A stretch of DNA of 64,000 nucleotides. Source: Phorcus lineatus. Lineage: Eukaryota; Mollusca; Gastropoda; Trochida; Trochidae. Shown piece by piece: positions 1-64,000 of this stretch. The stretch spans positions 36,463,764 through 36,527,763 of the forward strand of contig OV121092.1 of the NCBI GenBank assembly GCA_921293015.1, written 5' to 3'. The notes under the pieces are model-generated. The model made no database searches and was not told the origin of the DNA. It saw only the letters and a program-made list of their open reading frames with translations. The stretch's first letter is position 1, and each line of letters opens with the position of its first letter. Made by a program: the position numbers and the translations under genes.

Positions 1-208
1 AAACTTTCATCAAATGTACATCACATTGTGTTCTTTCGATTGAGCAATAGCAATTTCCTGTCCGGTTCTTGGTTTGGGCTCCAGATTCGAGCTTAAACAG
101 GTACAGATAGCTGATTTTGACCAAATTCGCGGGAAAAGACTGAGTCCAATATATGCATATTGTTGTAGCGAGCGCGATAACTTTCTTAAAAATGCATATT
201 TCTAAACC
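1..208. repeat. Reference monomer (M1) and its internal anatomy
   Basis: This monomer defines the coordinates used for variants. It is about 38.5% GC with 8 CpG sites. Landmarks are an odd dyad CACATTGTG at 22-30, CCAAT at 146-150 running into the 10-bp palindrome ATATGCATAT at 151-160, a second ATGCAT at 192-197, and an A-rich run at 188-192. Recurrent variable positions are 21 (T/C), 35 (A/T), 50 (G/C), 58 (C/A), 63 (C/T), 65 (G/A), 78 (G/C), 82 and 85, 121 (C/A), 132-133, 147, 150, 174 (G/A), 175 (C/T) and 193 (T/A). The stretches 89-120, 151-171 and 176-208 are nearly invariant. A weak internal echo, AACTTTC followed by AAATG, occurs at 179-194 and again at the start of the next monomer. 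Confidence 0.95.
146..160. other. CCAAT plus ATATGCATAT palindrome, once per monomer
   Basis: Shown for M1; it recurs every 208 bp. CCAAT abuts a TA-rich tract ending in a perfect 10-bp palindrome. The same segment can be read as a 6-bp inverted repeat CAATAT/ATATTG around a 4-base ATGC loop. Variants break the CCAAT part: GTCAAAT (for example M9, M21, M30), CCAAG (right half of the window) and TTCAAT (M210, M224). This is also where every TA-tract expansion in the window sits. A role as a protein-binding or fragile site is inference only. Confidence 0.6.
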
Positions 209-832
209 AAACTTTCATCAAATGTACATCACATTGTGTTCTATCGATTGAGCAATACCAATTTCCTGTCTGATTCTTGGTTTGGCCTCCAGATTCGAGC
301 TTAAACAGATACAGATAGCTGATTTTGACCAAATTCGCGGAAAAAGACTGAGTCCAATATATGCATATTGTTGTAGCGAGCGCGATAACTTTCTTAAAAA
401 TGCATATTTCTAAACCAAACTTTCATCAAATGTACATCACATTGTGTTCTATCGATTGAGCAATACCAATTTCCTGTCTGATTCTTGGTTTGGCCTCCAG
501 ATTCGAGCTTAAACAGGTACAGATAGCTGATTTTGACCAAATTCGCGGAAAAAGACTGAGTCCAATATATGCATATTGTTGTAGCGAGCGTGATAACTTT
601 CTTAAAAATGCATATTTCTAAACCAAACTTTCATCAAATGTACATCACATTGTGTTCTTTCGATTGAGCAATAGCAATTTCCTGTCCGGTTCTTGGTTTG
701 GCCTCAAGTTTCGAGCTTAAACAGGTACAGATAGCTGATTTTGACCAAATTCGCGGGAAAAGACTGAGTCCAATATATGCATATTGTTGTAGCGAGCGCG
801 ATAACTTTCTTAAAAATGCATATTTCTAAACC

Positions 833-8736: not shown

Positions 8737-8944
8737 AAACTTTCATCAAATGTACACCACATTGTGTTCTATCGATTGAGCAATAGCAATTTCCTGTCCG
8801 ATTCTTGGTTTGGGCTCCAGATTCGAGCTTAAACAGGTACAGATAGCTGATTTTGACCAAATTCGCGGAAAAAGACTGAGTCCAATATATGCATATTGTT
8901 GTAGCGAGCGCGATAACTTTCTTAAAAATGCATATTTCTAAACC

Positions 8945-11900
8945 AAACTTTCATCAAATGTACATCACATTGTGTTCTATCGATTGAGCAATACCAATTT
9001 CCTCTCTGATTCTTGGTTTGGCCTCCAGATTCGAGCTTAAACAGGTACAGATAGCTGATTTTGACCAAATTCGCGGAAAAAGACTGAGTCCAATATATGC
9101 ATATTGTTGTAGCGAGCGTGATAACTTTCTTAAAAATGCATATTTCTAAACCAAACTTTCATCAAATGTACATCACATTGTGTCCTTTCGATTGAGCAAT
9201 AGCAATTTCCTGTCCGATTCTTGGTTTGGCCTCCAGATTCGAGCTTAAACAGGTACAGATAGCTGATTTTGAACAAATTCGCGAAAAAAGACTGAGTCCA
9301 ATATATGCATATTGTTGTAGCGAGCGCGATAACTTTCTTAAAAAAGCATATTTCTAAACCAAACTTTCATCAAATGTACACCACATTGTGTTCTATCGAT
9401 TGAGCAATACCAATTTCCTGTCCGGTTCTTGGTTTGGCCTCAAGTTTCGAGCTTAAACAGGTACAGATAGCTGATTTTGACCAAATTCGCGGAAAAAGAC
9501 TGAGTCCAATATATGCATATTGTTGTAGCGAGCACGATAACTTTCTTAAAAATGCATATTTCTAAACCAAACTTTCATCAAATGTACACCACATTGTGTT
9601 CTTTCGATTGAGCAATAGCAATTTCCTGTCCGATTCTTGGTTTGGCCTCCAGATTCGAGCTTAAACAGGTACAGATAGCTGATTTTGAACAAATTCGCGG
9701 AAAAAGACTGAGTCCAATATATGCATATTGTTGTAGCGAGCGCGATAACTTTCTTAAAAAAGCATATTTCTAAACCAAACTTTCATCAAATGTACACCAC
9801 ATTGTGTTCTATCGATTGAGCAATACCAATTTCCTGTCCGGTTCTTGGTTTGGCCTCAAGTTTCGAGCTTAAACAGGTACAGATAGCTGATTTTGACCAA
9901 ATTCGCGGAAAAAGACTGAGTCCAATATATGCATATTGTTGTAGCGAGCACGATAACTTTCTTAAAAATGCATATTTCTAAACCAAACTTTCATCAAATG
10001 TACACCACATTGTGTTCTATCGATTGAGCAATAGCAATTTCCTGTCCGGTTCTTGGTTTGGCCTCAAGTTTCGAGCTTAAACAGGTACAGATAGCTGATT
10101 TTGACCAAATTCGCGGAAAAAGACTGAGTCCAATATATGCATATTGTTGTAGCGAGCGCGATAACTTTCTTAAAAATGCATATTTCTAAACCAAACTTTC
10201 ATCAAATGTACACCACATTGTGTTCTATCGATTGAGCAATAGCAATTTCCTGTCCGATTCTTGGTTTGGGCTCCAGATTCGAGCTTAAACAGGTACAGAT
10301 AGCTGATTTTGACCAAATTCGCGGAAAAAGACTGAGTCCAATATATGCATATTGTTGTAGCGAGCGCGATAACTTTCTTAAAAATGCATATTTCTAAACC
10401 AAACTTTCATCAAATGTACATCACATTGTGTTCTATCGATTGAGCAATACCAATTTCCTGTCTGATTCTTGGTTTGGCCTCCAGATTCGAGCTTAAACAG
10501 GTACAGATAGCTGATTTTGACCAAATTCGCGGAAAAAGACTGAGTCCAATATATGCATATTGTTGTAGCGAGCGTGATAACTTTCTTAAAAATGCATATT
10601 TCTAAACCAAACTTTCATCAAATGTACATCACATTGTGTTCTTTCGATTGAGCAATAGCAATTTCCTGTCCGATTCTTGGTTTGGCCTCCAGATTCGAGC
10701 TTAAACAGGTACAGATAGCTGATTTTGAACAAATTCGCGGAAAAAGACTGAGTCCAATATATGCATATTGTTGTAGCGAGCACGATAACTTTCTTAAAAA
10801 TGCATATTTTTAAACCAAACTTTCATCAAATGTACATCACACGTCATTGTGTTCTATCGATTGAGCAATACCAATTTCCTGTCCGGTTCTTGGTTTGGCC
10901 TCAAGTTTCGAGCTTAAACAGGTACAGATAGCTGATTTTGACCAAATTCGCGGGAAAAGACTGAGTCCAATATATGCATATTGTTGTAGCGAGCGCGATA
11001 ACTTTCTTAAAAATGCATATTTCTAAACCAAACTTTCATCAAATGTACACTACATTGTGTTCTATCGATTGAGCAATAGCAATTTCCTGTCCGATTCTTG
11101 GTTTGGCCTCCAGATTCGAGCTTAAACAGGTACAGATAGCTGATTTTGAACAAATTCGCGAAAAAAGACTGAGTCCAATATATGCATATTGTTGTAGCGA
11201 GCGCGATAACTTTCTTAAAAAAGCATATTTCTAAACCAAACTTTCATCAAATGTACATCACATTGTGTTCTATCGATTGAGCAATACCAATTTCCTGTCT
11301 GATTCTTGGTTTGGCCTCCAGATTCGAGCTTAAAAAGGTACAGATAGCTGATTTTGACCAAATTCGCGGAAAAAGACTGAGTCCAATATATGCATATTGT
11401 TGTAGCGAGCGTGATAACTTTCTTAAAAATGCATATTTCTAAACCAAACTTTCATCAAATGTACATCACATTGTGTCCTTTCGATTGAGCAATAGCAATT
11501 TCCTGTCCGATTCTTGGTTTGGCCTCAAGTTTCGAGCTTAAACAGGTACAGATAGCTGATTTTGACCAAATTCGCGGAAAAAGACTGAGTCCAATATATG
11601 CATATTGTTGTAGCGAGCACGATAACTTTCTTAAAAATGCATATTTCTAAACCAAACTTTCATCAAATGTACACCACATTGTGTTCTATCGATTGAGCAA
11701 TAGCAATTTCATGTCCGATTCTTGGTTTGGGCTCCAGATTCGAGCTTAAACAGGTACAGATAGCTGATTTTGACCAAATTCGCGGAAAAAGACTGAGTCC
11801 AATATATGCATATTGTTGTAGCGAGCGCGATAACTTTCTTAAAAATGCATATTTCTAAACCAAACTTTCATCAAATGTACACCACATTGTGTTCTATCGA

Positions 11901-12069
11901 TTGAGCAATAGCAATTTCCTGTCCGATTCTTGGTTTGGCCTCCAGATTCGAGCTTAAACAGGTACAGATAGCTGATTTTGACCAAATTCGCGGAAAAAGA
12001 CTGAGTCCAATATATGCATATTGTTGTAGCGAGCGCGATAACTTTCTTAAAAATGCATATTTCTAAACC
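8945..12069. repeat. 15-monomer HOR, copy 1 (M44-M58)
   Basis: The block is 3,125 bp, 15 monomers plus a 5-bp insertion. It opens with the marker CCTCTCTGA and holds M45-M49, an alternation of GAAC/AAAAAAG monomers with CAAGTTT/GCAC monomers. Near its middle it carries the 5-bp insertion and the neighbouring CATATTTTTAAACC change. The same order of variants follows in the adjoining block 12070-15817. Confidence 0.85.
10841..10845. other. 5-bp insertion ACGTC in monomer M53
   Basis: CATCAC-ATTGTG is interrupted by five bases. With the change CATATTTTTAAACC just upstream it forms a private two-site haplotype found only here and at 14589. It shifts the array phase by +5. Confidence 0.95.
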
Positions 12070-14271
12070 AAACTTTCATCAAATGTACATCACATTGTGT
12101 TCTATCGATTGAGCAATACCAATTTCCTCTCTGATTCTTGGTTTGGCCTCCAGATTCGAGCTTAAACAGGTACAGATAGCTGATTTTGACCAAATTCGCG
12201 GAAAAAGACTGAGTCCAATATATGCATATTGTTGTAGCGAGCGTGATAACTTTCTTAAAAATGCATATTTCTAAACCAAACTTTCATCAAATGTACATCA
12301 CATTGTGTCCTTTCGATTGAGCAATAGCAATTTCCTGTCCGATTCTTGGTTTGGCCTCCAGATTCGAGCTTAAACAGGTACAGATAGCTGATTTTGAACA
12401 AATTCGCGAAAAAAGACTGAGTCCAATATATGCATATTGTTGTAGCGAGCGCGATAACTTTCTTAAAAAAGCATATTTCTAAACCAAACTTTCATCAAAT
12501 GTACACCACATTGTGTTCTATCGATTGAGCAATACCAATTTCCTGTCCGGTTCTTGGTTTGGCCTCAAGTTTCGAGCTTAAACAGGTACAGATAGCTGAT
12601 TTTGACCAAATTCGCGGAAAAAGACTGAGTCCAATATATGCATATTGTTGTAGCGAGCACGATAACTTTCTTAAAAATGCATATTTCTAAACCAAACTTT
12701 CATCAAATGTACACCACATTGTGTCCTTTCGATTGAGCAATAGCAATTTCCTGTCCGATTCTTGGTTTGGCCTCCAGATTCGAGCTTAAACAGGTACAGA
12801 TAGCTGATTTTGAACAAATTCGCGGAAAAAGACTGAGTCCAATATATGCATATTGTTGTAGCGAGCGCGATAACTTTCTTAAAAAAGCATATTTCTAAAC
12901 CAAACTTTCATCAAATGTACACCACATTGTGTTCTATCGATTGAGCAATACCAATTTCCTGTCCGGTTCTTGGTTTGGCCTCAAGTTTCGAGCTTAAACA
13001 GGTACAGATAGCTGATTTTGACCAAATTCGCGGAAAAAGACTGAGTCCAATATATGCATATTGTTGTAGCGAGCACGATAACTTTCTTAAAAATGCATAT
13101 TTCTAAACCAAACTTTCATCAAATGTACACCACATTGTGTTCTATCGATTGAGCAATAGCAATTTCCTGTCCGGTTCTTGGTTTGGCCTCAAGTTTCGAG
13201 CTTAAACAGGTACAGATAGCTGATTTTGACCAAATTCGCGGAAAAAGACTGAGTCCAATATATGCATATTGTTGTAGCGAGCGCGATAACTTTCTTAAAA
13301 ATGCATATTTCTAAACCAAACTTTCATCAAATGTACACCACATTGTGTTCTATCGATTGAGCAATAGCAATTTCCTGTCCGATTCTTGGTTTGGGCTCCA
13401 GATTCGAGCTTAAACAGGTACAGATAGCTGATTTTGACCAAATTCGCGGAAAAAGACTGAGTCAAATATATGCATATTGTTGTAGCGAGCGCGATAACTT
13501 TCTTAAAAATGCATATTTCTAAACCAAACTTTCATCAAATGTACATCACATTGTGTTCTATCGATTGAGCAATACCAATTTCCTGTCTGATTCTTGGTTT
13601 GGCCTCCAGATTCGAGCTTAAACAGGTACAGATAGCTGATTTTGACCAAATTCGCGGAAAAAGACTGAGTCCAATATATGCATATTGTTGTAGCGAGCGT
13701 GATAACTTTCTTAAAAATGCATATTTCTAAACCAAACTTTCATCAAATGTACATCACATTGTGTCCTTTCGATTGAGCAATAGCAATTTCCTGTCCGATT
13801 CTTGGTTTGGCCTCAAGTTTCGAGCTTAAACAGGTACAGATAGCTGATTTTGACCAAATTCGCGGAAAAAGACTGAGTCCAATATATGCATATTGTTGTA
13901 GCGAGCACGATAACTTTCTTAAAAATGCATATTTCTAAACCAAACTTTCATCAAATGTACACCACATTGTGTTCTATCGATTGAGCAATAGCAATTTCAT
14001 GTCCGATTCTTGGTTTGGGCTCCAGATTCGAGCTTAAACAGGTACAGATAGCTGATTTTGACCAAATTCGCGGAAAAAGACTGAGTCCAATATATGCATA
14101 TTGTTGTAGCGAGCGCGATAACTTTCTTAAAAATGCATATTTCTAAACCAAACTTTCATCAAATGTACACCACATTGTGTTCTATCGATTGAGCAATAGC
14201 AATTTCCTGTCCGATTCTTGGTTTGGCCTCCAGATTCGAGCTTAAACAGGTACAGATAGCTGATTTTGACC

Positions 14272-24000: not shown

Positions 24001-26424
24001 TTTGGCCTCTAGATTCGAGCTTAAACAGGTACAGATAGCTGATTTTGACCAAATTCGCGGAAAAAGACTGAGTCAAATATATGCATATTGTTGTAGCGAG
24101 CACGATAACTTTCTTAAAAATGCATATTTCTAAACCAAACTTTCATCAAATGTACATCACATTGTGTTCTATCGATTGAGCAATAGCAATTTCATGTCCG
24201 ATTCTTGGTTTGGGCTCAAGATTCGAGCTTAAACAGGTACAGATAGCTGATTTTGACCAAATTCGCGGGAAAAGACTGAGTCCAATATATGCATATTGTT
24301 GTAGCGAGCGCGATAACTTTCTTAAAAATGCATATTTCTAAACCAAACTTTCATCAAATGTACACCACATTGTGTTCTATCGATTGAGCAATAGCAATTT
24401 CCTGTCCGATTCTTGGTTTGGGCTCCAGATTTGAGCTTAAACAGGTACAGATAGCTGATTTTGACCAAATTCGCGGAAAAAGACTGAGTCCAATATATGC
24501 ATATTGTTGTAGCGAGCGCGATAACTTTCTTAAAAATGCATATTTCTAAACCAAACTTTTATCAAATGTACATCACATTGTGTTCTATCGATTGAGCAAT
24601 AGCAATTTCCTGTCTGATTCTTGGTTTGGCCTCCAGATTCGAGCTTAAAAAGGTACAGATAGCTGATTTTGACCAAATTCGCGGAAAAAGACTGAGTCCA
24701 ATATATGCATATTGTTGTAGCGAGCGTGATAACTTTCTTAAAAATGCATATTTCTAAACCAAACTTTCATCAAATGTACATCACATTGTGTCCTTTCGAT
24801 TGAGCAATAGCAATTTCCTGTCCGATTCTTGGTTTGGCCTCAAGTTTCGAGCTTAAACAGGTACAGATAGCTGATTTTGACCAAATTCGCGGAAAAAGAC
24901 TGAGTCCAATATATGCATATTGTTGTAGCGAGCACGATAACTTTCTTAAAAATGCATATTTCTAAACCAAACTTTCATCAAATGTACACCACATTGTGTT
25001 CTATCGATTGAGCAATAGCAATTTCATGTCCGATTCTTGGTTTGGGCTCCAGATTCGAGCTTAAACAGGTACAGATAGCTGATTTTGACCAAATTCGCGG
25101 AAAAAGACTGAGTCCAATATATGCATATTGTTGTAGCGAGCGCGATAACTTTCTTAAAAATGCATATTTCTAAACCAAACTTTCATCAAATGTACATCAC
25201 ATTGTGTTCTATCGATTGAGCAATACCAATTTCCTGTCCGAGTCTTGGTTTGGGCTCAAGATTCGAGCTTAAACAGGTACAGATAGCTGATTTTGACCAA
25301 ATTCGCGGAAAAAGACTGAGTCCAATATATGCATATTGTTGTAGCGAGCGTGATAACTTTCTTAAAAATGCATATTTCTAAACCAAACTTTCATCAAATG
25401 TACATCACATTGTGTTCTTTCGATTGAGCAATAGCAATTTCCTGTCCGATTATTGGTTTGGGCTCCAGATTCGAGCTTAAACAGGTACAGATAGCTGATT
25501 TTGACCAAATTCGCGGAAAAAGACTGAGTCCAATATATGCATATTGTTGTAGCGAGCACGATAACTTTCTTAAAAATGCATATTTCTAAACCAAACTTTC
25601 ATCAAATGTACACCACATTGTGTTCTATCGATTGAGCAATAGCAATTTCATGTCCGATTCTTGGTTTGGGCTCCAGATTCGAGCTTAAACAGGTACAGAT
25701 AGCTGATTTTGACCAAATTCGCGGAAAAAGACTGAGTCCAATATATGCATATTGTTGTAGCGAGCGCGATAACTTTCTTAAAAATGCATATTTCTAAACC
25801 AAACTTTCATCAAATGTACATCACATTGTGTTCTATCGATTAAGCAATACCAATTTCCTGTCCGGTTCTTGGTTTGGCCTCAAGTTTCGAGCTTAAACAG
25901 GTACAGATAGCTGATTTTGACCAAATTCGCGGAAAAAGACTGAGTCCAATATATGCATATTGTTGTAGCGAGCGCGATAACTTTCTTAAAAATGCATATT
26001 TCTAAACTAAACTTTCATCAAATGTACACCACATTGTGTTCTATCGATTGAGCAATAGCAATTTCATTTCCAATTCTTGGTTTGGGCTCCAGATTCGAGC
26101 TTAAACAGGTACAGATAGCTGATTTTGACCAAATTCGCGGAAAAAGACTGAGTCTAATATATGCATATTGTTGTAGCGAGCGCGATAACTTTCTTAAAAA
26201 TGCATATTTCTAAACCAAACTTTCATCAAATGTACATCACATTGTGTTCTATCGATTGAGCAATAGCAATTTCCTGTCCTATTCTTGGTTTGGGCTCAAG
26301 ATTCGAGCTTAAACAGGTACAGATAGCTGATTTTGACCAAATTCGCGGAAAAAGACTGAGTCCAATATATGCATATTGTTGTAGCGAGCACGATAACTTT
26401 CTTAAAAATGCATATTTCTAAACC
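21018..26424. repeat. 26-monomer HOR, copy 1 (M102-M127)
   Basis: The block is 5,407 bp: 26 x 208 minus one base at the A-run 22037-22040. Ordered markers are CAGATTTGAG, AAAAAGGTAC, GTCCTTTC, CATGTCC, GACCGAG with the A deletion, TCCGAGTC, GATTATTGG, ATTAAGC, CTAAACTAAAC with CATTTCCA, and CCTGTCCTATTC. All recur in the same order in 26425-31415. A shorter subrepeat lies inside: the four-monomer start M102-M105 recurs as M118-M121. Confidence 0.88.
22037..22040. other. 1-bp deletion in the A-run (M106)
   Basis: Four A residues stand where nearly all other monomers have five or six before GCAT. The deletion travels with GGCCTCTAG, GACCGAG and GCGTGAT and recurs at 27444. Confidence 0.93.
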
Positions 26425-32455: not shown

Positions 32456-32603
32456 AAACTTTCATCAAATGTACATCACATTGTGTTCTATCGATTGAGC
32501 AATAGCAATTTCCTGTCCGGTTCTTGGTTTGGCCTCAAGTTTCGAGCTTAAACAGGTACAGATAGCTGATTTTGACCAAATTCGCGGAAAAAGACTGAGT
32601 CCA

Positions 32604-32613
32604 ATATATAAAT
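32604..32613. other. 4-bp tract expansion, variant form (M157)
   Basis: CCAATATATAAATGCAT replaces CCAATATATGCAT: four extra bases, with one A where the sister copies have T. Confidence 0.9.
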
Positions 32614-33439
32614 GCATATTGTTGTAGCGAGCGCGATAACTTTCTTAAAAATGCATATTTCTAAACCAAACTTTCATCAAATGTACATCACATTGTGTTC
32701 TATCGATTGAGCAATACCAATTTCCTGTCCGGTTCTTGGTTTGGCCTCAAGTTTCGAGCTTAAACAGGTACAGATAGCTGATTTTGACCAAATTCGCGGA
32801 AAAAGACTGAGTCCAATATATGCATATTGTTGTAGCGAGCGCGATAACTTTCTTAAAAATGCATATTTCTAAACTAAACTTTCATCAAATGTACACCACA
32901 TTGTGTTCTATCGATTGAGCAATAGCAATTTCATTTCCAATTCTTGGTTTGGGCTCCAGATTCGAGCTTAAACAGGTACAGATAGCTGATTTTGACCAAA
33001 TTCGCGGAAAAAGACTGAGTCCAATATATGCATATTGTTGTAGCGAGCACGATAACTTTCTTAAAAATGCATATTTCTAAACCAAACTTTCATCAAATGT
33101 ACATCACATTGTGTTCTTTCGATTGAGCAATAGCAATTTCATGTCCGATTCTTGGTTTGGGCTCCAGATTCGAGCTTAAACAGGTACAGATAGCTGATTT
33201 TGACCAAATTCGCGGAAAAAGACTGAGTCCAATATATGCATATTGTTGTAGCGAGCGCGATAACTTTCTTAAAAATGCATATTTCTAAACCAAACTTTCA
33301 TCAAATGTACATCACATTGTGTTCTATCGATTGAGCAATAGCAATTTCCTGTCCGGTTCTTGGTTTGGCCTCAAGTTTCGAGCTTAAACAGGTACAGATA
33401 GCTGATTTTGACCAAATTCGCGGAAAAAGACTGAGTCCA

Positions 33440-33449
33440 ATATATATAT
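33440..33449. other. TA-tract expansion (M161)
   Basis: The alternating AT tract before GCAT is 10 bases instead of 6. Confidence 0.95.
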
Positions 33450-34275
33450 GCATATTGTTGTAGCGAGCGCGATAACTTTCTTAAAAATGCATATTTCTAA
33501 ACCAAACTTTCATCAAATGTACATCACATTGTGTTCTATCGATTGAGCAATACCAATTTCCTGTCCGGTTCTTGGTTTGGCCTCAAGTTTCGAGCTTAAA
33601 CAGGTACAGATAGCTGATTTTGACCAAATTCGCGGAAAAAGACTGAGTCCAATATATGCATATTGTTGTAGCGAGCGCGATAACTTTCTTAAAAATGCAT
33701 ATTTCTAAACTAAACTTTCATCAAATGTACACCACATTGTGTTCTATCGATTGAGCAATAGCAATTTCATTTCCAATTCTTGGTTTGGGCTCCAGATTCG
33801 AGCTTAAACAGGTACAGATAGCTGATTTTGACCAAATTCGCGGAAAAAGACTGAGTCCAATATATGCATATTGTTGTAGCGAGCACGATAACTTTCTTAA
33901 AAATGCATATTTCTAAACCAAACTTTCATCAAATGTACATCACATTGTGTTCTTTCGATTGAGCAATAGCAATTTCATGTCCGATTCTTGGTTTGGGCTC
34001 CAGATTCGAGCTTAAACAGGTACAGATAGCTGATTTTGACCAAATTCGCGGAAAAAGACTGAGTCCAATATATGCATATTGTTGTAGCGAGCGCGATAAC
34101 TTTCTTAAAAATGCATATTTCTAAACCAAACTTTCATCAAATGTACATCACATTGTGTTCTATCGATTGAGCAATAGCAATTTCCTGTCCGGTTCTTGGT
34201 TTGGCCTCAAGTTTCGAGCTTAAACAGGTACAGATAGCTGATTTTGACCAAATTCGCGGAAAAAGACTGAGTCCA

Positions 34276-34285
34276 ATATATATAT
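34276..34285. other. TA-tract expansion (M165)
   Basis: Same 10-base tract, in the third 836-bp HOR copy. Confidence 0.95.
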
Positions 34286-34755
34286 GCATATTGTTGTAGC
34301 GAGCGCGATAACTTTCTTAAAAATGCATATTTCTAAACCAAACTTTCATCAAATGTACATCACATTGTGTTCTATCGATTGAGCAATACCAATTTCCTGT
34401 CCGGTTCTTGGTTTGGCCTCAAGTTTCGAGCTTAAACAGGTACAGATAGCTGATTTTGACCAAATTCGCGGAAAAAGACTGAGTCCAATATATGCATATT
34501 GTTGTAGCGAGCGCGATAACTTTCTTAAAAATGCATATTTCTAAACTAAACTTTCATCAAATGTACACCACATTGTGTTCTATCGATTGAGCAATAGCAA
34601 TTTCATTTCCAATTCTTGGTTTGGGCTCCAGATTCGAGCTTAAACAGGTACAGATAGCTGATTTTGACCAAATTCGCGGAAAAAGACTGAGTCCAATATA
34701 TGCATATTGTTGTAGCGAGCACGATAACTTTCTTAAAAATGCATATTTCTAAACC

Positions 34756-37251: not shown

Positions 37252-37400
37252 AAACTTTCATCAAATGTACATCACATTGTGTTCTATCGATTGAGCAATA
37301 GCAATTTCCTGTCCGGTTCTTGGTTTGGGCTCAAGATTCGAGCTTAAACAGGTACAGATAGCTGATTTTGACCAAATTCGCGGAAAAAGACTGAGTCCAA

Positions 37401-37412
37401 TATAATTTATAT
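37401..37412. other. 9-bp insertion in the TA tract (M180)
   Basis: CCAATATAATTTATATATGC replaces CCAATATATGC. It is the longest length variant in the window. It probably builds on the 4-bp expansion, with an extra ATTTA-like segment. Confidence 0.93.
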
Positions 37413-38448
37413 ATGCATATTGTTGTAGCGAGCGCGATAACTTTCTTAAAAATGCATATTTCTAAACCAAACTTTCATCAAATGTACATCACATTGTGTT
37501 CTATCGATTGAGCAATAGCAATTTCCTGTCCGGTTCTTGGTTTGGCCTCAAGTTTCGAGCTTAAACAGGTACAGATAGCTGATTTTGACCAAATTCGCGG
37601 AAAAAGACTGAGTCCAATATATGCATATTGTTGTAGCGAGCACGATAACTTTCTTAAAAATGCATATTTCTAAACCAAACTTTCATCAAATGTACATCAC
37701 ATTGTGTTCTTTCGATTGAGCAATAGCAATTTCCTGTCCGATTCTTGGTTTGGCCTCCAGATTCGAGCTTAAACAGGTACAGATAGCTGATTTTGACCAA
37801 ATTCGCGGAAAAAGACTGAGTCCAATATATGCATATTGTTGTAGCGAGCGCGATAACTTTCTTAAAAATGCATATTTCTAAACCAAACTTTCATCAAATG
37901 TACATCACATTGTGTTCTATCGATTGAGCAATACCAATTTCCTGTCCGATTCTTGGTTTGGGCTCCAGATTCGAGCTTAAACAGGTACAGATAGCTGATT
38001 TTGACCAAATTCGCGGAAAAAGACTGAGTCCAATATATGCATATTGTTGTAGCGAGCACGATAACTTTCTTAAAAATGCATATTTCTAAACCAAACTTTC
38101 ATCAAATGTACACCGCATTGTGTTCTATCGATTGAGCAATAGCAATTTCATGTCCGATTCTTGGTTTGGGCTCCAAATTCGAGCTTAAACAGGTACAGAT
38201 AGCTGATTTTGACCAAATTCGCGGAAAAAGACTGAGTCCAATATATGCATATTGTTGTAGCGAGCGCGATAACTTTCTTAAAAATGCATATTTCTAAACC
38301 AAACTTTCATCAAATGTACATCACATTGTGTTCTATCGATTGAGCAATAGCAATTTCCTGTCCGGTTCTTGGTTTGGGCTCAAGATTCGAGCTTAAACAG
38401 GTACAGATAGCTGATTTTGACCAAATTCGCGGAAAAAGACTGAGTCCA

Positions 38449-41160: not shown

Positions 41161-41170
41161 ATATATATAT
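41161..41170. other. TA-tract expansion (M198)
   Basis: 10-base alternating AT tract in place of 6, in a monomer that also has GGCCCCAAG. Confidence 0.95.
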
Positions 41171-41788
41171 GCATATTGTTGTAGCGAGCGCGATAACTTT
41201 CTTAAAAATGCATATTTCTAAACAAAACTTTCATCAAATGTACATCACATTGTGTTCTATCGATTGAGCAATACCAATTTCCTTTCCGATTCTTGGTTTG
41301 GGCTCCAGATTCGAGCTTAAACAGGTACAGATAGCTGATTTTGACCAAATTCGCGGAAAAAGACTGAGTCCAATATATGCATATTGTTGTAGCGAGCACG
41401 ATAACTTTCTTAAAAATGCATATTTCTAAACCAAACTTTCATCAAATGTACACCACATTGTGTTCTATCGATTGAGCAATAGCACTTTCATGTCCGATTC
41501 TTGATTTAGGCTCGAGATTCGAGCTTAAACAGGTACAGATAGCTGATTTTGACCAAATTCGCGGGAAAAGACTGAGTCCAAGATATGCATATTGTTGTAG
41601 CGAGCGCGATAACTTTCTTAAAAATGCATATTTCTAAACCAAACTTTCATCAAATGTACATCACATTGTGTTCTATCGATTGAGCAATAGCAATTTCCTG
41701 TCCGGTTCTTGGTTTGGCCCCAAGTTTCGAGCTTAAACAGGTACAGATAGCTGATTTTGACCAAATTCGCGGAAAAAGACTGAGTCCA

Positions 41789-41798
41789 ATATATATAT
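41789..41798. other. TA-tract expansion (M201), last in the window
   Basis: 10-base alternating AT tract. From here to the end the monomer phase is constant, so the final 22 kb contain no net length change. Confidence 0.95.
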
Positions 41799-43100: not shown

Positions 43101-45804
43101 AAACTTACATCAAATGTACATCACATTGTGTTCTATCGATTGAGCAATACCAATTTCCTGTCCGGTTCTTGGCTTGGCCTCAAGTTTCGAGCTTAAACAG
43201 GTACAGATAGCTGATTTTGACCAAATTCGCGGAAAAGGACTGAGTCCAATATATGCATATTGTTGTAGCGAGCACGATAACTTTCTTAAAAATGCATATT
43301 TCTAAACCAAACTTTCATCAAATGTACACCACATTGTGTTCTATCGATTGAGCAATAGCAATTTCCTGTCCGATTCTTGGTTTGGCCTCCAGATTCGAGC
43401 TTAAACAGGTACAGATAGCTGATTTTGAACAAATTCGCGGAAAAAGACTGAGTCCAATATATGCATATTGTTGTAGCGAGCGCGATAACTTTCTTAAAAA
43501 TGCATATTTCTAAACCAAACTTTCATCAAATGTACACCACATTGTGTTCTATCGATTGAGCAATACCAATTTCCTGTCCGGTTCTTGGTTTGGCCTCAAG
43601 TTTCGAGCTTAAACAGGTACAGATAGCTGATTTTGACCAAATTCGCGGAAAAAGACTGAGTTCAATATATGCATATTGTTGTAGCGAGCACGATAACTTT
43701 CTTAAAAATGCATATTTCTAAACTAAACTTTCATCAAATGTACACCGCATTGTGTTCTATCGATTGAGCAATAGCAATTTCATGTCCGATTCTTGGTTTG
43801 GGCTCCAGATTCGAGCTTAAACAGGTACAGATAGCTGATTTTGACCAAATTCGCGGAAAAAGACTGAGTCCAATATATGCATATTGTTGTAGCGAGCGCG
43901 ATAACTTTCTTAAAAATGCATATTTCTAAACCAAACTTTCATCAAATGTACATCACATTGTGTTCTTTCAATTGAGCAATAGCAATTTCCTGTCCGATTC
44001 TTGGTTTGGCCTCCAGATTCTAGCTTAAACAGGTACAGATAGCTGATTTTGAACAAATTCGCGAAAAAAGACTGAGTCCAATATATGCATATTGTTGTAG
44101 CGAGCGCGATAACTTTCTTAAAAATGCATATTTCTAAACCAAACTTTCATCAAATGTACACCACATTGTGTTCTATCGATTGAGCAATAGCAATTTCATG
44201 TCCGATTCTTGGTTTGGGCTCCAGATTCGAGCTTAAACAGGTACAGATAGCTGATTTTGACCAAATTCGCGGAAAAAGACTGAGTCCAATATATGCATAT
44301 TGTTGTAGCGAGCGCGATAACTTTCTTAAAAATGCATATTTCTAAACCAAACTTTCATCAAATGTACATCACATTGTGTTCTATCGATTGAGCAATACCA
44401 ATTTCCTGTCCTATTCTTGGTTTGGGCTCAGGATTCGAGCTTAAACAGGTACAGATAGCTGATTTTGACCAAATTCGCGGAAAAAGACTGAGTCCAATAT
44501 ATGCATATTGTTGTAGCGAGCGCGATAACTTTCTTAAAAATGCATATTTCTAAACCAAACTTTCATCAAATGTACATCACATTGTGTTCTTTCGATTGAG
44601 CAATAGCAATTTCCTGTCCGATTCTTGGTTTGGCCTCCAGATTCTAGCTTAAACAGGTACAGATAGCTGATTTTGAACAAATTCGCGAAAAAAGACTGAG
44701 TCCAATATATGCATATTGTTGTAGCGAGCGCGATAACTTTCTTAAAAATGCATATTTCTAAACCAAACTTTCATCAAATGTACACCACATTGTGTTCTAT
44801 CGATTGAGCAATAGCAATTTCCTGTCCGGTTCTTGGTTTGGCCTCAAGTTTCGAGCTTAAATAGGTACAGATAGCTGATTTTGACCAAATTCGCGGAAAA
44901 AGACTGAGTCCAATATATGCATATTGTTGCAGCGAGCGCGATAACTTTCTTAAAAATGCATATTTCTAAACCAAACTTTCATCAAATGTACATCACATTG
45001 TGTTCTTTCAATTGAGCAATAGCAATTTCCTGTCCGATTCTTGGTTTGGCCTCCAGATTCTAGCTTAAACAGGTACAGATAGCTGATTTTGAACAAATTC
45101 GCGAAAAAAGACTGAGTCCAATATATGCATATTGTTGTAGCGAGCGCGATAACTTTCTTAAAAATGCATATTTCTAAACCAAACTTTCATCAAATGTACA
45201 CCACATTGTGTTCTATCGATTGAGCAATAGCAATTTCATGTCCGATTCTTGGTTTGGGCTCCAGATTCGAGCTTAAACAGGTACAGATAGCTGATTTTGA
45301 CCAAATTCGCGGAAAAAGACTGAGTCCAATATATGCATATTGTTGTAGCGAGCGCGATAACTTTCTTAAAAATGCATATTTCTAAACCAAACTTTCATCA
45401 AATGTACATCACATTGTGTTCTATCGATTGAGCAATACCAATTTCCTGTCCTATTCTTGGTTTGGGCTCAGGATTCGAGCTTAAACAGGTACAGATAGCT
45501 GATTTTGACCAAATTCGCGGAAAAAGACTGAGTCCAATATATGCATATTGTTGTAGCGAGCACGATAACTTTCTTAAAAATGCATATTTCTAAACCAAAC
45601 TTTCATCAAATGTACACCACATTATGTTCTATCGATTGAGCAATAGCACTTTCATGTCCGATTCTTGATTTAGGCTCCAGATTCGAGCTTAAACAGGTAC
45701 AGATAGCTGATTTTGACCAAATTCGCGGGAAAAGACTGAGTCCAAGATATGCATATTGTTGTAGCGAGCGCGATAATTTTCTTAAAAATGCATATTTCTA
45801 AACC
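43101..45804. repeat. 13-monomer HOR, copy 1 (M208-M220)
   Basis: Markers in order are AAACTTACATC with CTTGGCTTGG, GAGTTCAAT, CTAAACTAAAC with ACACCGCATTG, TTTCAATTG with ATTCTAGC, CCTGTCCTATTC with CTCAGGATTC, and GTTGCAGCG. All recur in 45805-48716, where most are offset by 14 monomers (2,912 bp). A 5-monomer subrepeat starts at 43933 and again at 44973 (offset 1,040 bp). Confidence 0.85.
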
Positions 45805-48716: not shown

Positions 48717-51700
48717 AAACTTTCATCAAATGTACACCACATTGTGTTCTATCGATTGAGCAATACCAATTTCCTGTCCGATTCTTGGTTTGGCCTCAAG
48801 TTTCGAGCTTAAACAGGTACAGATAGCTGATTTTGACCAAATTCGCGGAAAAAGACTGAGTCCAATATATGCATATTGTTGTAGCGAGCGCGTTAACTTT
48901 CTTAAAAATGCATATTTCTAAACCAAACTTTCATCAAATGTACATCACATCGTGTTCTATCGATTGAGCAATAGCAATTTCCTGTCCGGTTCTTATTTTG
49001 GCCTAAAGTTTCGAGCTTAAACAGGTACAGATAGCTGATTTTGACCAAATTCGCGGAAAAAGACTGAGTCCAATATATGCATATTGTTGTAGCGAGCACG
49101 ATAACTTTCTTAAAAATGCATATTTCTAAACCAAACTTTCATCAAATGTACACCACATTGTGTTCTATCGATTGAGCAATAGCAATTTCATGTCCGATTC
49201 TTGATTTGGGCTCCAGATTCGAGCTTAAACAGGTACAGATAGCTGATTTTGACCAAATTCGCGGGAAAAGACTGAGTCCAATATATGCATATTGTTGTAG
49301 CGAGCGCGATAACTTTCTTAAAAATGCATATTTCTAAACCAAACTTTCATCAAATGTACACCACATTGTGTTCTATCGATTGAGCAATACCAATTTCATG
49401 TCCGAATCTTGGTTTGGGCTCCAGATTCGAGCTTAAACAGGTACAGATAGCTGATTTTGACCAAATTCGCGGGAAAAGACTGAGTCCAAGATATGCATAT
49501 TGTTGTAGCGAGCGCGATAACTTTCTTAAAAATGCATATTTCTAAACCAAACTTTCATCAAATGTACATCACATTGTGTTCTATCGATTGAGCAATAGCA
49601 ATTTCCTGTCCGGTTCTTGGTTTGGCCTAAAGTTTCGAGCTTAAACAGGTACAGATAGCTGATTTTGACCAAATTCGCGGAAAAAGACTGAGTCCAATAT
49701 ATGCATATTGTTGTAGCGAGCGCGATAACTTTCTTAAAAATGCATATTTCTAAATTAAACTTTTATCAAATGTACACCACATTGTGTTCTATCGATTGAG
49801 CAATAGCAATTTTATTTCCAATTCTTGGTTTGGGCTCCAGATTCGAGCTTAAACAGGTACAGATAGCTGATTTTGACCAAATTCGCGGGAAAAGACTGAG
49901 TCCAATATATGCATATTGTTGTAGCGAGCGCGATAACTTTCTTAAAAATGCATATTTCTAAACCAAACTTTCATCAAATGTACACCACATTGTGTTCTAT
50001 CGATTGAGCAATACCAATTTCATGTCCGAATCTTGGTTTGGGCTCCAGATTCGAGCTTAAACAGGTACAGATAGCTGATTTTGACCAAATTCGCGGGAAA
50101 AGACTGAGTCCAAGATATGCATATTGTTGTAGCGAGCGCGATAACTTTCTTAAAAATGCATATTTCTAAACCAAACTTTCATCAAATGTACATCACATTG
50201 TGTTCTTTCGATTGAGCAATAGCAATTTCCTGTCCGGTTCTTGGTTTGGGCTCCAGATTCGAGCTTAAACAGGTACAGATAGCTGATTTTGACCAAATTC
50301 GCGGAAAAAGACTGAGTCCAAGATATGCATATTGTTGTAGCGAGCGCGATAACTTTCTTAAAAATGCATATTTCTAAACCAAACTTTCATCAAATGTACA
50401 TCACATTGTGTTCTTTCGATTGAGCAATAGCAATTTCTTGTCCGATTCTTGATTTGGGCTCCAGATTCGAGCTTAAACAGGTACAGATAGCTGATTTTGA
50501 ACAAATTCGCGAAAAAAGACTGAGTCCAATATATGCATATTGTTGTAGCGAGCGCGATAACTTTCTTAAAAATGCATATTTCTAAACCAAACTTTCATCA
50601 AATGTACACCACATTGTGTTCTATCGATTGAGCAATACCAATTTCCTGTCCGATTCTTGGTTTGGCCTCAAGTTTCGAGCTTAAACAGGTACAGATAGCT
50701 GATTTTGACCAAATTCGCGGAAAAAGACTGAGTCCAATATATGCATATTGTTGTAGCGAGCACGATAACTTTCTTAAAAATGCATATTTCTAAACCAAAC
50801 TTTCATCAAATGTACACCACATTGTGTTCTATCGATTGAGCAATAGCAATTTCATGTCCGATTCTTGATTTGGGCTCCAGATTCGAGCTTAAACAGGTAC
50901 AGATAGCTGATTTTGACCAAATTCGCGGGAAAAGACTGAGTCCAATATATGCATATTGTTGTAGCGAGCGCGATAACTTTCTTAAAAATGCATATTTCCA
51001 AACCAAACTTTCATCAAATGTACATCACATTGTGTTCTATCGATTGAGCAATACCAATTTCCTGTCCGGTTCTTGGTTTGGCCTCAAGTTTCGAGCTTAA
51101 ACAGGTACAGATAGCTGATTTTGACCAAATTCGCGGAAAAAGACTGAGTCCAATATATGCATATTGTTGTAGCGAGCGCGATAACTTTCTTAAAAATGCA
51201 TATTTCTAAACCAAACTTTCATCAAATGTACACCACATTGTGTTCTATCGATTGAGCAATACCAATTTCCTGTCCGATTCTTGGTTTGGGCTCCAGATTC
51301 GAGCTTAAACAGGTACAGATAGCTGATTTTGACCAAATTCGCGGAAAAAGACTGAGTCCAATATATGCATATTGTTGTAGCGAGCGCGATAACTTTCTTA
51401 AAAATGCATATTTCTAAACCAAACTTTCATCAAATGTACATCACATTGTGTTCTATCGATTGAGCAATAGCAATTTCCTGTCCGGTTCTTGGTTTGGCCT
51501 CAAGTTTCGAGCTTAAACAGGTACAGATAGCTGATTTTGACCAAATTCGCGGAAAAAGACTGAGTCCAATATATGCATATTGTTGTAGCGAGCGCGATAA
51601 CTTTCTTAAAAATGCATATTTCTAAACCAAACTTTCATCAAATGTACATCACATTGTGTTCTATCGATTGAGCAATAGCAATTTCCTGTCCGATTCTTGG

Positions 51701-55788: not shown

Positions 55789-57244
55789 AAACTTTCATCA
55801 AATGTACATCACATTGTGTTCTATCGATTGAGCAATAGCAATTTCCTGTCCGGTTCTTGGTTTGGCCTCAAGTTTCGAGCTTAAACAGGTACAGATAGCT
55901 GATTTTGACCAAATTCGCGGAAAAAGACTGAGTCCAATATATGCATATTGTTGTAGCGAGCGCGATAACTTTCTTAAAAATGCATATTTCTAAACCAAAC
56001 TTTCATCAAATGTACACCACATTGTGTTCTATCGATTGAGCAATAGCAATTTCATGTCCGATTCTTGGTTTGGGCTCCAGATTCGAGCTTAAACAGGTAC
56101 AGATAGCTGATTTTGACCAAATTCGCGGAAAAAGACTGAGTCCAATATATGCATATTGTTGTAGCGAGCGCGATAACTTTCTTAAAAATGCATATTTCTA
56201 AACCAAACTTTCATCAAATGTACATCACATTGTGTTCTATCGATTGAGCAATAGCAATTTCCTGTCCGGTTCTTGGTTTGGCCTCAAGTTTCGAGCTTAA
56301 ACAGGTACAGATAGCTGATTTTGACCAAATTCGCGGAAAAAGACTGAGTCCAATATATGCATATTGTTGTAGCGAGCGCGATAACTTTCTTAAAAATGCA
56401 TATTTCTAAACCAAACTTTCATCAAATGTACACCACATTGTGTTCTATCGATTGAGCAATAGCAATTTCATGTCCGATTCTTGGTTTGGGCTCCAGATTC
56501 GAGCTTAAACAGGTACAGATAGCTGATTTTGACCAAATTCGCGGAAAAAGACTGAGTCCAATATATGCATATTGTTGTAGCGAGCGCGATAACTTTCTTA
56601 AAAATGCATATTTCTAAACCAAACTTTCATCAAATGTACATCACATTGTGTTCTATCGATTGAGCAATAGCAATTTCCTGTCCGGTTCTTGGTTTGGCCT
56701 CAAGTTTCGAGCTTAAACAGGTACAGATAGCTGATTTTGACCAAATTCGCGGAAAAAGACTGAGTCCAATATATGCATATTGTTGTAGCGAGCGCGATAA
56801 CTTTCTTAAAAATGCATATTTCTAAACCAAACTTTCATCAAATGTACACCACATTGTGTTCTATCGATTGAGCAATAGCAATTTCATGTCCGATTCTTGG
56901 TTTGGGCTCCAGATTCGAGCTTAAACAGGTACAGATAGCTGATTTTGACCAAATTCGCGGAAAAAGACTGAGTCCAATATATGCATATTGTTGTAGCGAG
57001 CGCGATAACTTTCTTAAAAATGCATATTTCTAAACCAAACTTTCATCAAATGTACATCACATTGTGTTCTATCGATTGAGCAATAGCAATTTCCTGTCCG
57101 GTTCTTGGTTTGGCCTCAAGTTTCGAGCTTAAACAGGTACAGATAGCTGATTTTGACCAAATTCGCGGAAAAAGACTGAGTCCAATATATGCATATTGTT
57201 GTAGCGAGCGCGTTAACTTTCTTAAAAATGCATATTTCTAAACC
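55789..57244. repeat. Homogeneous dimeric HOR (416 bp), 3.5 copies
   Basis: CCTGTCCGG/GGCCTCAAG monomers alternate with CATGTCCGA/GGGCTCCAG monomers from M269 to M275. I see no difference between the first three dimers. The last half-copy has GCGCGTTAAC. This is the most uniform stretch in the window and so probably one of the youngest amplifications. Confidence 0.88.
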
Positions 57245-60156: not shown

Positions 60157-63100
60157 AAACTTTCATCAAATGTACACCACATTGTGTTCTATCGATTGAG
60201 CAATAGCACTTTCATGTCCGATTCTTGATTTGGGCTCCAGATTCGAGCTTAAACAGGTACAGATAGCTGATTTTGACCAAATTCGCGGGAAAAGACTGAG
60301 TCCAATATATGCATATTGTTGTAGCGAGCGCGATAACTTTCTTAAAAATGCATATTTCTAAACCAAACTTTCATCAAATGTACACCACATTGTGTTCTAT
60401 CGATTGAGCAATAGCAATTTCATGTCCGATTCTTGATTTGGGCTCCAGATTCGAGCTTAAACAAGTACAGATAGCTGATTTTGACCAAATTCGCGGGAAA
60501 AGACTGAGTCCAAGATATGCATATTGTTGTAGCGAGCGCGATAACTTTCTTAAAAATGCATATTTCTAAACCAAACTTTCATCAAATGTACATCACATTG
60601 TGTTCTATCGATTGAGCAATACCAATTTCCTGTCCGGTTCTTGGTTTGGCCTCCAGATTCGAGCTTAAACAGGTACAGATAGCTGATTTTGACCAAATTC
60701 GCGGAAAAAGACTGAGTCCAATATATGCATATTGTTGTAGCGAGCACGATAACTTTCTTAAAAATGCATATTTCTAAACCAAACTTTCATCAAATGTACA
60801 CCACATTGTGTTCTATCGATTGAGCAATACCAATTTCATGTCCGAATCTTGGTTTGGCCTCAAGTTTCGAGCTTAAACAGGTACAGATAGCTGATTTTGA
60901 CCAAATTCGCGGAAAAAGACTGAGTCCAATATATGCATATTGTTGTAGCGAGCGCGATAACTTTCTTAAAAATGCATATTTCTAAACTAAACTTTCATCA
61001 AATGTACACCACATTGTGTTCTATCGATTGAGCAATAGCAATTTTATTTCCAATTCTTGGTTTGGGCTCCAGATTCGAGCTTAAACAGGTACAGATAGCT
61101 GATTTTGACCAAATTCGCGGAAAAAGACTGAGTCCAATATATGCATATTGTTGTAGCGAGCGCGATAACTTTCTTAAAAATGCATATTTCTAAACCAAAC
61201 TTTCATCAAATGTACACCACATTGTGTTCTATCGATTGAGCAATACCAATTTCATGTCCGAATCTTGGTTTGGCCTCAAGTTTCGAGCTTAAACAGGTAC
61301 AGATAGCTGATTTTGACCAAATTCGCGGGAAAAGACTGAGTCCAAGATATGCATATTGTTGTAGCGAGCGCGATAACTTTCTTAAAAATGCATATTTCTA
61401 AACCAAACTTTCATCAAATGTACATCACATTGTGTTCTATCGATTGAGCAATACCAATTTCCTGTCCGGTTCTTGGTTTGGCCTCCAGATTCGAGCTTAA
61501 ACAGGTACAGATAGCTGATTTTGAACAAATTCGCGGAAAAAGACTGAGTCCAATATATGCATATTGTTGTAGCGAGCGCGATAACTTTCTTAAAAATGCA
61601 TATTTCTAAACCAAACTTTCATCAAATGTACACCACATTGTGTTCTATCGATTGAGCAATAGCAATTTCATGTCCGATTCTTGATTTGGGCTCCAGATTC
61701 GAGCTTAAACAAGTACAGATAGCTGATTTTGACCAAATTCGCGGGAAAAGACTGAGTCCAAGATATGCATATTGTTGTAGCGAGCGCGATAACTTTCTTA
61801 AAAATGCATATTTCTAAACCAAACTTTCATCAAATGTACATCACATTGTGTTCTATCGATTGAGCAATACCAATTTCCTGTCCGGTTCTTGGTTTGGGCT
61901 CCAGATTCGAGCTTAAACAGGTACAGATAGCTGATTTTGAACAAATTCGCGGAAAAAGACTGAGTCCAATATATGCATATTGTTGTAGCGAGCACGATAA
62001 CTTTCTTAAAAATGCATATTTCTAAACCAAACTTTCATCAAATGTACACCACATTGTGTTCTATCGATTGAGCAATACCAATTTCATGTACGAATCTTGG
62101 TTTGGGCTCCAGATTCGAGCTTAAACAGGTACAGATAGCTGATTTTGACCAAATTCGCGAAAAAAGACTGAGTCCAATATATGCATATTGTTGTAGCGAG
62201 CGCGATAACTTTCTTAAAAATGCATATTTCTAAACCAAACTTTCATCAAATGTACACCACATTGTGTTCTATCGATTGAGCAATACCAATTTCCTGTCCG
62301 GTTCTTGGTTTGGCCTCCAGATTCGAGCTTAAACAGGTACAGATAGCTGATTTTGAACAAATTCGCGGAAAAAGACTGAGTCCAATATATGCATATTGTT
62401 GTAGCGAGCACGATAACTTTCTTAAAAATGCATATTTCTAAACCAAACTTTCATCAAATGTACACCACATTGTGTTCTATCGATTGAGCAATAGCACTTT
62501 CATGTCCGATTCTTGGTTTGGGCTCCAGATTCGAGCTTAAACAGGTACAGATAGCTGATTTTGAACAAATTCGCGGAAAAAGACTGAGTCCAATATATGC
62601 ATATTGTTGTAGCGAGCGCGATAACTTTCTTAAAAATGCATATTTCTAAACCAAACTTTCATCAAATGTACACCACATTGTGTTCTATCGATTGAGCAAT
62701 ACCAATTTCATGTCCGAATCTTGGTTTGGCCTCAAGTTTCGAGCTTAAACAGGTACAGATAGCTGATTTTGACCAAATTCGCGGGAAAAGACTGAGTCCA
62801 AGATATGCATATTGTTGTAGCGAGCGCGATAACTTTCTTAAAAATGCATATTTCTAAACCAAACTTTCATCAAATGTACACCACATTGTGTTCTATCGAT
62901 TGAGCAATAGCACTTTCATGTCCGATTCTTGATTTGGGCTCCAGATTCGAGCTTAAACAGGTACAGATAGCTGATTTTGACCAAATTCGCGGGAAAAGAC
63001 TGAGTCCAATATATGCATATTGTTGTAGCGAGCGCGATAACTTTCTTAAAAATGCATATTTCTAAACCAAACTTTCATCAAATGTACATCACATTGTGTT

Positions 63101-64000
63101 CTATCGATTGAGCAATACCAATTTCCTGTCCGATTCTTGGTTTGGCCTCCAGATTCGAGCTTAAACAGGTACAGATAGCTGATTTTGAACAAATTCGCGG
63201 AAAAAGACTGAGTCCAATATATGCATATTGTTGTAGCGAGCACGATAACTTTCTTAAAAATGCATATTTCTAAACCAAACTTTCATCAAATGTACACCAC
63301 ATTGTGTTCTATCGATTGAGCAATAGCAATTTCCTGTCCGATTCTTGGTTTGGGCTCCAGATTCGAGCTTAAACAGGTACAGATAGCTGATTTTGACCAA
63401 ATTCGCGGAAAAAGACTGAGTCCAATATATGCATTTTGTTGTAGCGAGCGCGATAACTTTCTTAAAAATGCATATTTCTAAACCAAACTTTCATCAAATG
63501 TACATCACATTGTGTTCTATCGATTGAGCAATAGCAATTTCCTGTCCGGTTCTTGGTTTGGCCTCAAGTTTCGAGCTTAAACAGGTACAGATAGCTGATT
63601 TTGACCAAATTCGCGGAAAAAGACTGAGTCCAATATATGCATATTGTTGTAGCGAGCACGATAACTTTCTTAAAAATGCATATTTCTAAACCAAACTTTC
63701 ATCAAATGTACACCACATTGTGTTCTTTCGATTGAGCAATAGCAATTTTATTTCCAATTCTTGGTTTGGGCTCCAGATTCGAGCTTAAACAGGTACAGAT
63801 AGCTGATTTTGACCAAATTCGCGGAAAAAGACTGAGTCCAATATATGCATATTGTTGTAGCGAGCGCGATAACTTTCTTAAAAATGCATATTTCTAAACC
63901 AAACTTTCATCAAATGTACACCACATTGTGTTCTATCGATTGAGCAATAGCACTTTCATGTCCGATTCTTGATTTGGGCTCCAGATTCGAGCTTAAACAG
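60157..64000. repeat. Irregular HOR region to the window end (M290-M308)
   Basis: M291-M292 (60365-60780) correspond to M297-M298 (61613-62028), offset 6 monomers, marked by AACAAGTAC. AGCACTTTC monomers occur at 60157, 62445, 62861 and 63901. M305 (63277) shares the rare GCATTTTG with M268 (55581). The array is cut by the window edge after 100 bp of M308, so it continues beyond. Confidence 0.68.

What the first reader, a model, noticed from the sequence alone, without database searches (positions are those of the whole stretch)
1..64000. A 64-kb pure megasatellite of an unrecognised 208-bp monomer
All 64 kb are one head-to-tail satellite with no gene, transposon or inversion. I do not recognise the monomer from any satellite family I know. 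The unit length is compatible with one nucleosome plus linker. Such purity over more than 300 monomers suggests a functional heterochromatin domain, possibly the centromere, but this is inference.
Basis: partly seen in the sequence, partly recalled or inferred. Interest (0 to 1): 0.7.

Follow-up and report, generated by a model that had tools for sequence, protein, structure and literature searches.

The report
A 208-bp satellite DNA array
The window is one unbroken stretch of a 208-base satellite repeat, an ordinary kind of non-coding chromosome DNA, with one odd detail: no two neighbouring copies in it are identical, although copies two or more units apart often are.

Summary
All 64,000 bases are one direct array of a 208-bp monomer: 307 full copies and a 100-base partial one, no N, no inversion, no gene found, mean identity 97.8% to the consensus. 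The array runs through both window ends, so its length is unknown. The host was not identified: the genome search failed 16 of 16 times, and no satellite library is on hand. Centromere function could be neither supported nor refuted.

Near-identical neighbours are absent: 0 of 306 adjacent pairs differ at no or one site, against 19-24 at each lag 2-8. Simulations disfavour single-monomer duplication (zero identical neighbours in 0-4% of runs) and fit exchange units of two or more monomers better (10-18.5%), though only marginally on stricter measures. Most likely an ordinary lineage-specific heterochromatic or (peri)centromeric satellite, homogenised by unequal exchange or break-induced replication. 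New sequence as far as searched, known kind.

The parts
1..64000 (+). Uninterrupted head-to-tail array of a 208-bp satellite monomer (307 full plus one 100-base partial; direction is relative to the window strand)
1..208 (+). First monomer, taken as phase 1 (arbitrary phase): starts AAACTTTCATCAAATGTAC, ends TCTAAACC
24137..26216 (+). Ten-monomer block whose near-identical copy (4 differences in all) lies at 29128-31207, 24 monomers away
43517..45596 (+). Ten-monomer block whose near-identical copy (3 differences in all) lies at 46429-48508, 14 monomers away
8737..10608 (+). Nine-monomer block whose near-identical copy (3 differences in all) lies at 11862-13733, 15 monomers away
32456..34755 (+). 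Local tetramer higher-order repeat, unit 836 bp (one 212-bp plus three 208-bp monomers), 2.75 copies, 1 difference in all
55789..57244 (+). Local dimer higher-order repeat: two monomer types in alternation, 3.5 copies, 1 difference in all
37252..37468 (+). 217-bp monomer, the longest; its 9 extra bases lie in the AT-rich stretch after GAGTCC. The seven 212-bp monomers (32456, 33292, 34128, 38301, 39553, 41013, 41641) carry 4 extra bases there
10817..11029 (+). 213-bp monomer with 5 extra bases near column 21; the other 213-bp monomer lies 18 monomers on, at 14565, so it marks one block duplication

Best explanation
A lineage-specific satellite DNA array of a eukaryote, most likely constitutive heterochromatin, (peri)centromeric or other (eukaryote and place are inferred, not shown). 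No coding role was found. It is kept homogeneous by repeated local duplication, deletion and conversion between out-of-register copies, by unequal exchange or break-induced replication. Shown by the sequence: blocks of 4 to 10 monomers recur 2 to 33 monomers away; linkage between variants ignores the monomer boundary; recent duplicates lie at least two monomers (416 bp) apart and never one. Inferred: that one monomer carries one nucleosome, and that exchange by a single monomer is either not made or quickly lost.
For: Array, purity, no gene found. Block duplications: 48 blocks of at least 3 monomers with at most 1 difference per monomer, covering 64% of monomers, against a mean of 0.73 and a maximum of 3 in 30 order shuffles. 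Linkage between variant columns falls with distance, not strictly step by step (mean r2 0.090 at 1-10 bp, 0.027 at 25-50, 0.058 at 50-75, about 0.02 at 130-208, 0.006-0.009 beyond 208; unlinked expectation 0.003), and crosses the monomer boundary. Adjacent pairs: 0 of 306 identical, against 6-16 at each lag 2-14. Runs of pairs with at most 1 difference: 0 at lag 1, 9-18 at each lag 2-14, 3 at lag 15. In the raw sequence, whatever the phase, the longest exact match at offset 208 is 205 bp, against 1057, 397, 641, 716 and 1337 bp at offsets 416, 624, 832, 1040 and 1248. In each third of the window 0 adjacent pairs have at most 1 difference. Simulations with the mutation rate tuned to the identity at lags 2-6: with single-monomer steps allowed, zero identical neighbours in 1.0%, 4.0% and 0% of 200 runs under three size distributions; with units of two or more, 16.5%, 10% and 18.5%. 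AT phasing at 10.4 bp, 20 turns per monomer: 39 of 3000 shuffles as strong.
Against: No flank, chromosome or host is known, so the placement has no data behind it. The two-monomer model is marginal on stricter measures: no adjacent pair with at most 1 difference in 4.5%, 3.0% and 2.5% of runs, and the observed excess of lag-1 difference in 15.5%, 2.5% and 3.5%. The simulations do not match the observed share of distinct monomers (0.31-0.70 against 0.53). In an untuned simulation no run of any model, units of two or more included, gave zero (0 of 12 each). The 10.4-bp signal is not the only peak: 1229 of 3000 shuffles have some period as strong as the strongest. An assembly effect is not excluded without reads.
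Confidence: 0.8

Rival explanations
1. It is the functional centromere: the monomer phases CENH3/CENP-A nucleosomes and the kinetochore forms on this array.
For: Unit near nucleosome size, AT-rich (63%), local higher-order blocks, AT phasing at 10.4 bp. [quoted passage not shown]
Against: Nothing here tests it. No CENP-B box: the best match in the whole window, either strand, has 5 of 17 mismatches at one site, and the consensus has 6 (3 of 9 in the core; box recalled). One monomer folded on each strand is not unusual, z 0.19 and 0.50. Length and GC are not conserved among candidate centromere repeats (PMC4053949, section 9).
Confidence: 0.35
2. It is a non-centromeric heterochromatic or subtelomeric satellite, or part of a sex or B chromosome.
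For: Purity and local homogenisation are equally expected there (established knowledge); no transposon in 64 kb fits a young, fast-turning array.
Against: No chromosome context is available either way.
Confidence: 0.45
3. The absence of identical neighbours is active: adjacent near-identical monomers are removed, by recombination between neighbours or by selection, rather than merely not made.
For: Adjacent pairs differ more (7.50) than pairs 100 or more apart (7.13), and in each third more than pairs 20 or more apart (7.23 against 6.49, 7.10 against 6.80, 8.14 against 7.40). Two-monomer models reach zero pairs with at most 1 difference in only 2.5-4.5% of runs. Neighbour-collapse simulations always give zero, but by construction. 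A comparable rule, CENP-B boxes rarely in adjacent monomers, is reported for human alpha satellite (PMC8997354, passage seen).
Against: A minimum unit of two monomers explains much of it. In the middle third lag 2 is as different as lag 1 (7.21 against 7.10). The excess is small.
Confidence: 0.3
4. The missing identical neighbours are an assembly or consensus effect.
For: Reads were not available. Satellite arrays are hard to assemble.
Against: Exact repeats of 1057 bp at offset 416 and 1337 bp at offset 1248 survive in the assembly; an error that drops only 208-bp offsets is hard to picture.
Confidence: 0.1

Closest known systems
Human alpha satellite with higher-order repeats (171-bp monomer)
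   Same: Direct array, block-wise duplication, neighbours more different than block copies; near-nucleosome unit
   Different: Monomers within an alpha higher-order repeat may be only 50-70% identical while multimer copies are nearly identical (PMC8997354, passage seen); here two monomers differ at about 7 of 208 sites on average, blocks are irregular, and there is no CENP-B box
Arabidopsis CEN178 centromere satellite
   Same: Very many overlapping short higher-order blocks (TRASH paper PMC10199239, passages seen); that they are irregular among highly similar monomers is recalled
   Different: 178 bp, plant, other sequence (recalled, not aligned here); whether CEN178 lacks identical neighbours was not checked
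Tribolium madens major satellites (TmSat1, TmSat2)
   Same: Long arrays of putative (peri)centromeric satellite
   Different: Their longer arrays tend to carry inverted subarrays, macro-dyad symmetries (PMC13081366, passages seen); this window has no inversion in 64 kb
Hemp delCS-237 (208-bp consensus)
   Same: Unit length only
   Different: About 2.5 monomers (209, 206 and a 109-bp part; first two 89% alike) in the 45S rDNA spacer (PMC9183113, passages seen). Sequences were not aligned; none of 18 fragments of this window's monomer occurs in that paper's held text

Membership tests
Satellite DNA (long tandem arrays of a non-coding unit) | Long head-to-tail array of near-identical units | tested here: met
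   307.5 copies, 64 kb
Satellite DNA (long tandem arrays of a non-coding unit) | No protein-coding gene in the unit | tested here: met
   No ORF above 80 aa; 3 of 38 ORFs scanned, no Pfam match
Centromeric satellite | CENH3/CENP-A nucleosomes on the monomer | not testable with these tools
   No chromatin data
Centromeric satellite | Most abundant tandem repeat of the genome | not tested
   The genome search unanswered in 16 of 16 attempts (last)
CENP-B-binding satellites | 17-bp CENP-B box | tested here: not met
   Best match in the window has 5 of 17 mismatches, one site; consensus 6 of 17, core 3 of 9; box recalled from memory
Regular higher-order repeat array (alpha-satellite type) | One fixed multimer period over the array | tested here: not met
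   No dominant lag in 1-60; the 21 blocks of four or more monomers have lags from 2 to 33
Tribolium-type macro-dyad satellite | Inverted subarrays | tested here: not met
   0 reverse-complement 15-mers in this window; the rest of the array was not seen

The most novel reading that the evidence does not exclude
Satellite turnover here obeys a nearest-neighbour rule: copies are exchanged only in steps of two or more monomers, and near-identical neighbours are actively lost. This would mean that chromatin (one nucleosome per 208-bp unit) or mismatch-sensitive recombination sets a minimum step for satellite exchange, a rule readable from any assembled array.
Probability: 0.3. Interest if true: 0.55.

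Novelty: new member of a known kind. Interest (0 to 1): 0.32.

Why it matters
As a satellite it adds one more sequence family to a very large class. The part worth keeping is the neighbour rule. How satellites turn over (unequal exchange, conversion or break-induced replication, and with what step size) is an open question, and the distribution of identical copies by lag in an assembled array bears on the step size directly. The same count can be run on any telomere-to-telomere centromere.

Tried and rejected
Host identification: the genome search 'own' was tried 16 times with one and the same request and never answered. Exact-pattern scans: genome contigs one pattern, 0 hits; viral contigs three patterns with 0 hits and one 19-base pattern with one hit that does not extend, taken as chance. 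Diverged relatives would be missed by these. Plasmids and phages: no blastn match at E 0.1 for the first 416 bases.

Literature: searches for a 208-bp satellite and for 18 fragments of the monomer, 13-18 nt, 9 from each strand, gave no paper on this repeat. The papers listed were: hemp CS-237 (passages seen: a 208-bp rDNA-spacer variant), fish CharSat01-52 (passage seen: 208 bp is a concatenated consensus of that repeat, used for read mapping), a Hippophae mitochondrial genome and a DEK nucleosome paper (listing only). Supplements were not searchable. sought papers on neighbour similarity; of 14 listed, five were opened in part (PMC4053949, PMC8997354, PMC10199239, PMC13081366; PMC13192020, where the passages seen say nothing on neighbours).

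Rejected: a regular higher-order repeat; a simple A/B alternation (lag 2 is not more alike than lags 3-6); a coding or RNA-gene array (with the limits given); an unusually structured strand (one monomer); a significantly long conserved box (longest run of columns with at most 5 variants is 23; 61% of permutations reach that). CpG o/e is 1.04; C>T/G>A is higher at CpG columns (mean 9.9 against 2.1), but 10 of 16 CpG positions show none, so host methylation is left open.

Overstatement corrected: order permutations made zero identical neighbours look impossible (none in 2000 at each of three local block widths; P 0.015 for the whole array). Block-duplication simulations, the fairer null, give 0-4% with single-monomer steps and 10-18.5% without. 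A first untuned simulation gave far too many identical pairs and was set aside; in it no model gave zero. In one search the printed test on pairs with at most 2 differences used a threshold of 8, which counts indels, while its own observed value is 12; it is not used.

Full report
Observation. The window is a single direct array. TRF reports one row, 1-64000, period 208, 307.5 copies, 96% matches. A wrap-around alignment gives 307 full monomers and a 100-base partial one; 294 of the full ones are exactly 208 bp, the rest 207, 212, 213 or 217. Mean identity to the consensus is 97.8% and no monomer equals it; 162 of 307 are distinct by substitutions. GC is 37% and flat along the window. No reverse-strand copy exists, and there is no N. 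No gene was found: the largest ORF is 80 aa, no tRNA, no Rfam match in the first 5,000 bases, all that was scanned, no Pfam match in 3 of 38 ORFs. The array runs through both window ends, so its total length is unknown.

Host and novelty. The genome tool did not complete (16 of 16 attempts, last), so host, copy number and neighbours are unknown; that the host is a eukaryote is inferred from the kind of sequence. Exact patterns from the monomer have no match in prokaryote genome contigs (one pattern) or viral contigs (three patterns), apart from one 19-base chance match. The first 416 bases have no blastn match in plasmids or phages. Eight paper searches by unit length or by fragment found no description; the one 208-bp unit they turned up, hemp delCS-237, is a short rDNA-spacer repeat (passages seen) and was not aligned. 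No satellite database was available, so 'unrecognised' is not the same as 'undescribed'.

Anatomy of variation. Of 208 columns, 126 never vary in the 307 full monomers; 25 columns carry a variant in 12 or more of them and hold 90% of all differences. Common variants cluster in columns 21-85 (18 of 65 columns have more than 5 variants, against 12 of 143 elsewhere, Fisher P 0.0005; the range was chosen after seeing the counts), while rare variants do not (P 0.39). Linkage between variant columns falls with distance, though not strictly step by step, and runs across the monomer boundary, so exchange breakpoints do not seem tied to the monomer's phase. This is the mosaic expected from conversion and unequal exchange (inference).

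Blocks. Near-identical blocks recur locally: ten monomers at 24137 copied at 29128, ten at 43517 copied at 46429, nine at 8737 copied at 11862, a tetramer at 32456-34755 and a dimer at 55789-57244. In all, 48 blocks of at least three monomers with at most one difference each cover 64% of monomers; order shuffles give 0.73 on average and 3 at most in 30. By looser criteria like the defaults of TRASH (at most 5 differences) the observed 974 is little above the shuffled 835, so that criterion says little at this similarity. There is no fixed period, so these are irregular, local higher-order blocks.

Neighbour rule. Not one of 306 adjacent pairs is identical; lags 2-14 give 6-16 identical pairs each. 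Allowing one difference, adjacent pairs form 0 runs against 9-18 runs at each lag 2-14 and 3 at lag 15. Without any monomer alignment, the longest exact match at offset 208 is 205 bp, while offsets 416 to 1248 reach 397-1337 bp. Each third of the window has 0 adjacent pairs with at most one difference. Order permutation is too easy a null, because a duplication of k monomers gives identity at lag k. In block-duplication simulations with k from 1 upward, zero identical neighbours occurred in 1.0%, 4.0% and 0% of 200 runs under three size distributions; with k from 2 upward, in 16.5%, 10% and 18.5%. The stricter statistic, no adjacent pair with at most one difference, occurred in 0, 2.5 and 0% against 4.5, 3.0 and 2.5%; the observed excess of lag-1 difference in 2, 2 and 0% against 15.5, 2.5 and 3.5%. 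These simulations do not reproduce the observed share of distinct monomers (0.31-0.70 against 0.53). So single-monomer steps are disfavoured, and a two-monomer minimum fits better but marginally. A simpler tuned simulation agrees: zero in 1 of 40 and 1 of 40 runs with k from 1, 5 of 40 and 7 of 40 with k from 2. An untuned one had too many identical pairs and gave zero under no model, 0 of 12 each. Adjacent pairs are also a little more different (7.50) than pairs 100 or more apart (7.13), and in each third more than pairs 20 or more apart, though in the middle third lag 2 is as different as lag 1. This leaves room for active loss of similar neighbours. An assembly effect is unlikely, since much longer exact repeats survive at other offsets, but reads would settle it.

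Physical features. AT dinucleotides of the consensus show 10.4-bp phasing, 20 turns per monomer (39 of 3000 shuffles as strong), but some period is as strong as the strongest in 1229 of 3000. This is suggestive of nucleosome fit and no more. A 10-bp palindrome ATATGCATAT lies at columns 151-160 in a little-varying stretch, but conserved stretches as long are common under permutation. There is no CENP-B box (at best 5 of 17 mismatches in the whole window) and no unusual folding of the one monomer tested. CpG is not depleted.

Mechanism. In the models reviewed in PMC8997354 (passages seen), out-of-register unequal exchange or break-induced replication amplifies local blocks; both fit. The sequence adds that the step is at least two monomers. 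Why is inferred: one nucleosome per monomer may hinder exchange at a one-unit shift, or similar neighbours may recombine and be lost. The human rule that CENP-B boxes are rarely in adjacent monomers is the nearest published parallel seen; only two searches were made for such parallels, so no claim is made that the rule is unpublished.

Verdict. An ordinary satellite array of unknown host, of a family not found in the collections searched, with a clean and testable neighbour rule. The centromere reading remains open.

Noticed in passing
window 1-64000, offset 208: No adjacent pair of monomers is identical or differs at a single site (0 of 306), while each lag from 2 to 14 has 6-16 identical pairs.
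   Followed up: yes
window 32456-41852: All seven 212-bp monomers and the 217-bp one lie in this stretch and carry extra bases in the AT-rich stretch after GAGTCC, a local indel marker seemingly spread by block duplication.
   Followed up: partly
monomer columns 1-19 and about 177-195: The fuzzy anchor for the monomer start also matches 32 bp before it in most monomers, so the unit holds two loosely related AT-rich stretches, perhaps a trace of a shorter ancestral unit.
   Followed up: no
window 41641-49964: Diversity within blocks of 20 monomers is highest here (mean pair difference 8.5 against 5.4-7.5 in the other blocks), and the monomer types change between the left and right parts of the window.
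   Followed up: no
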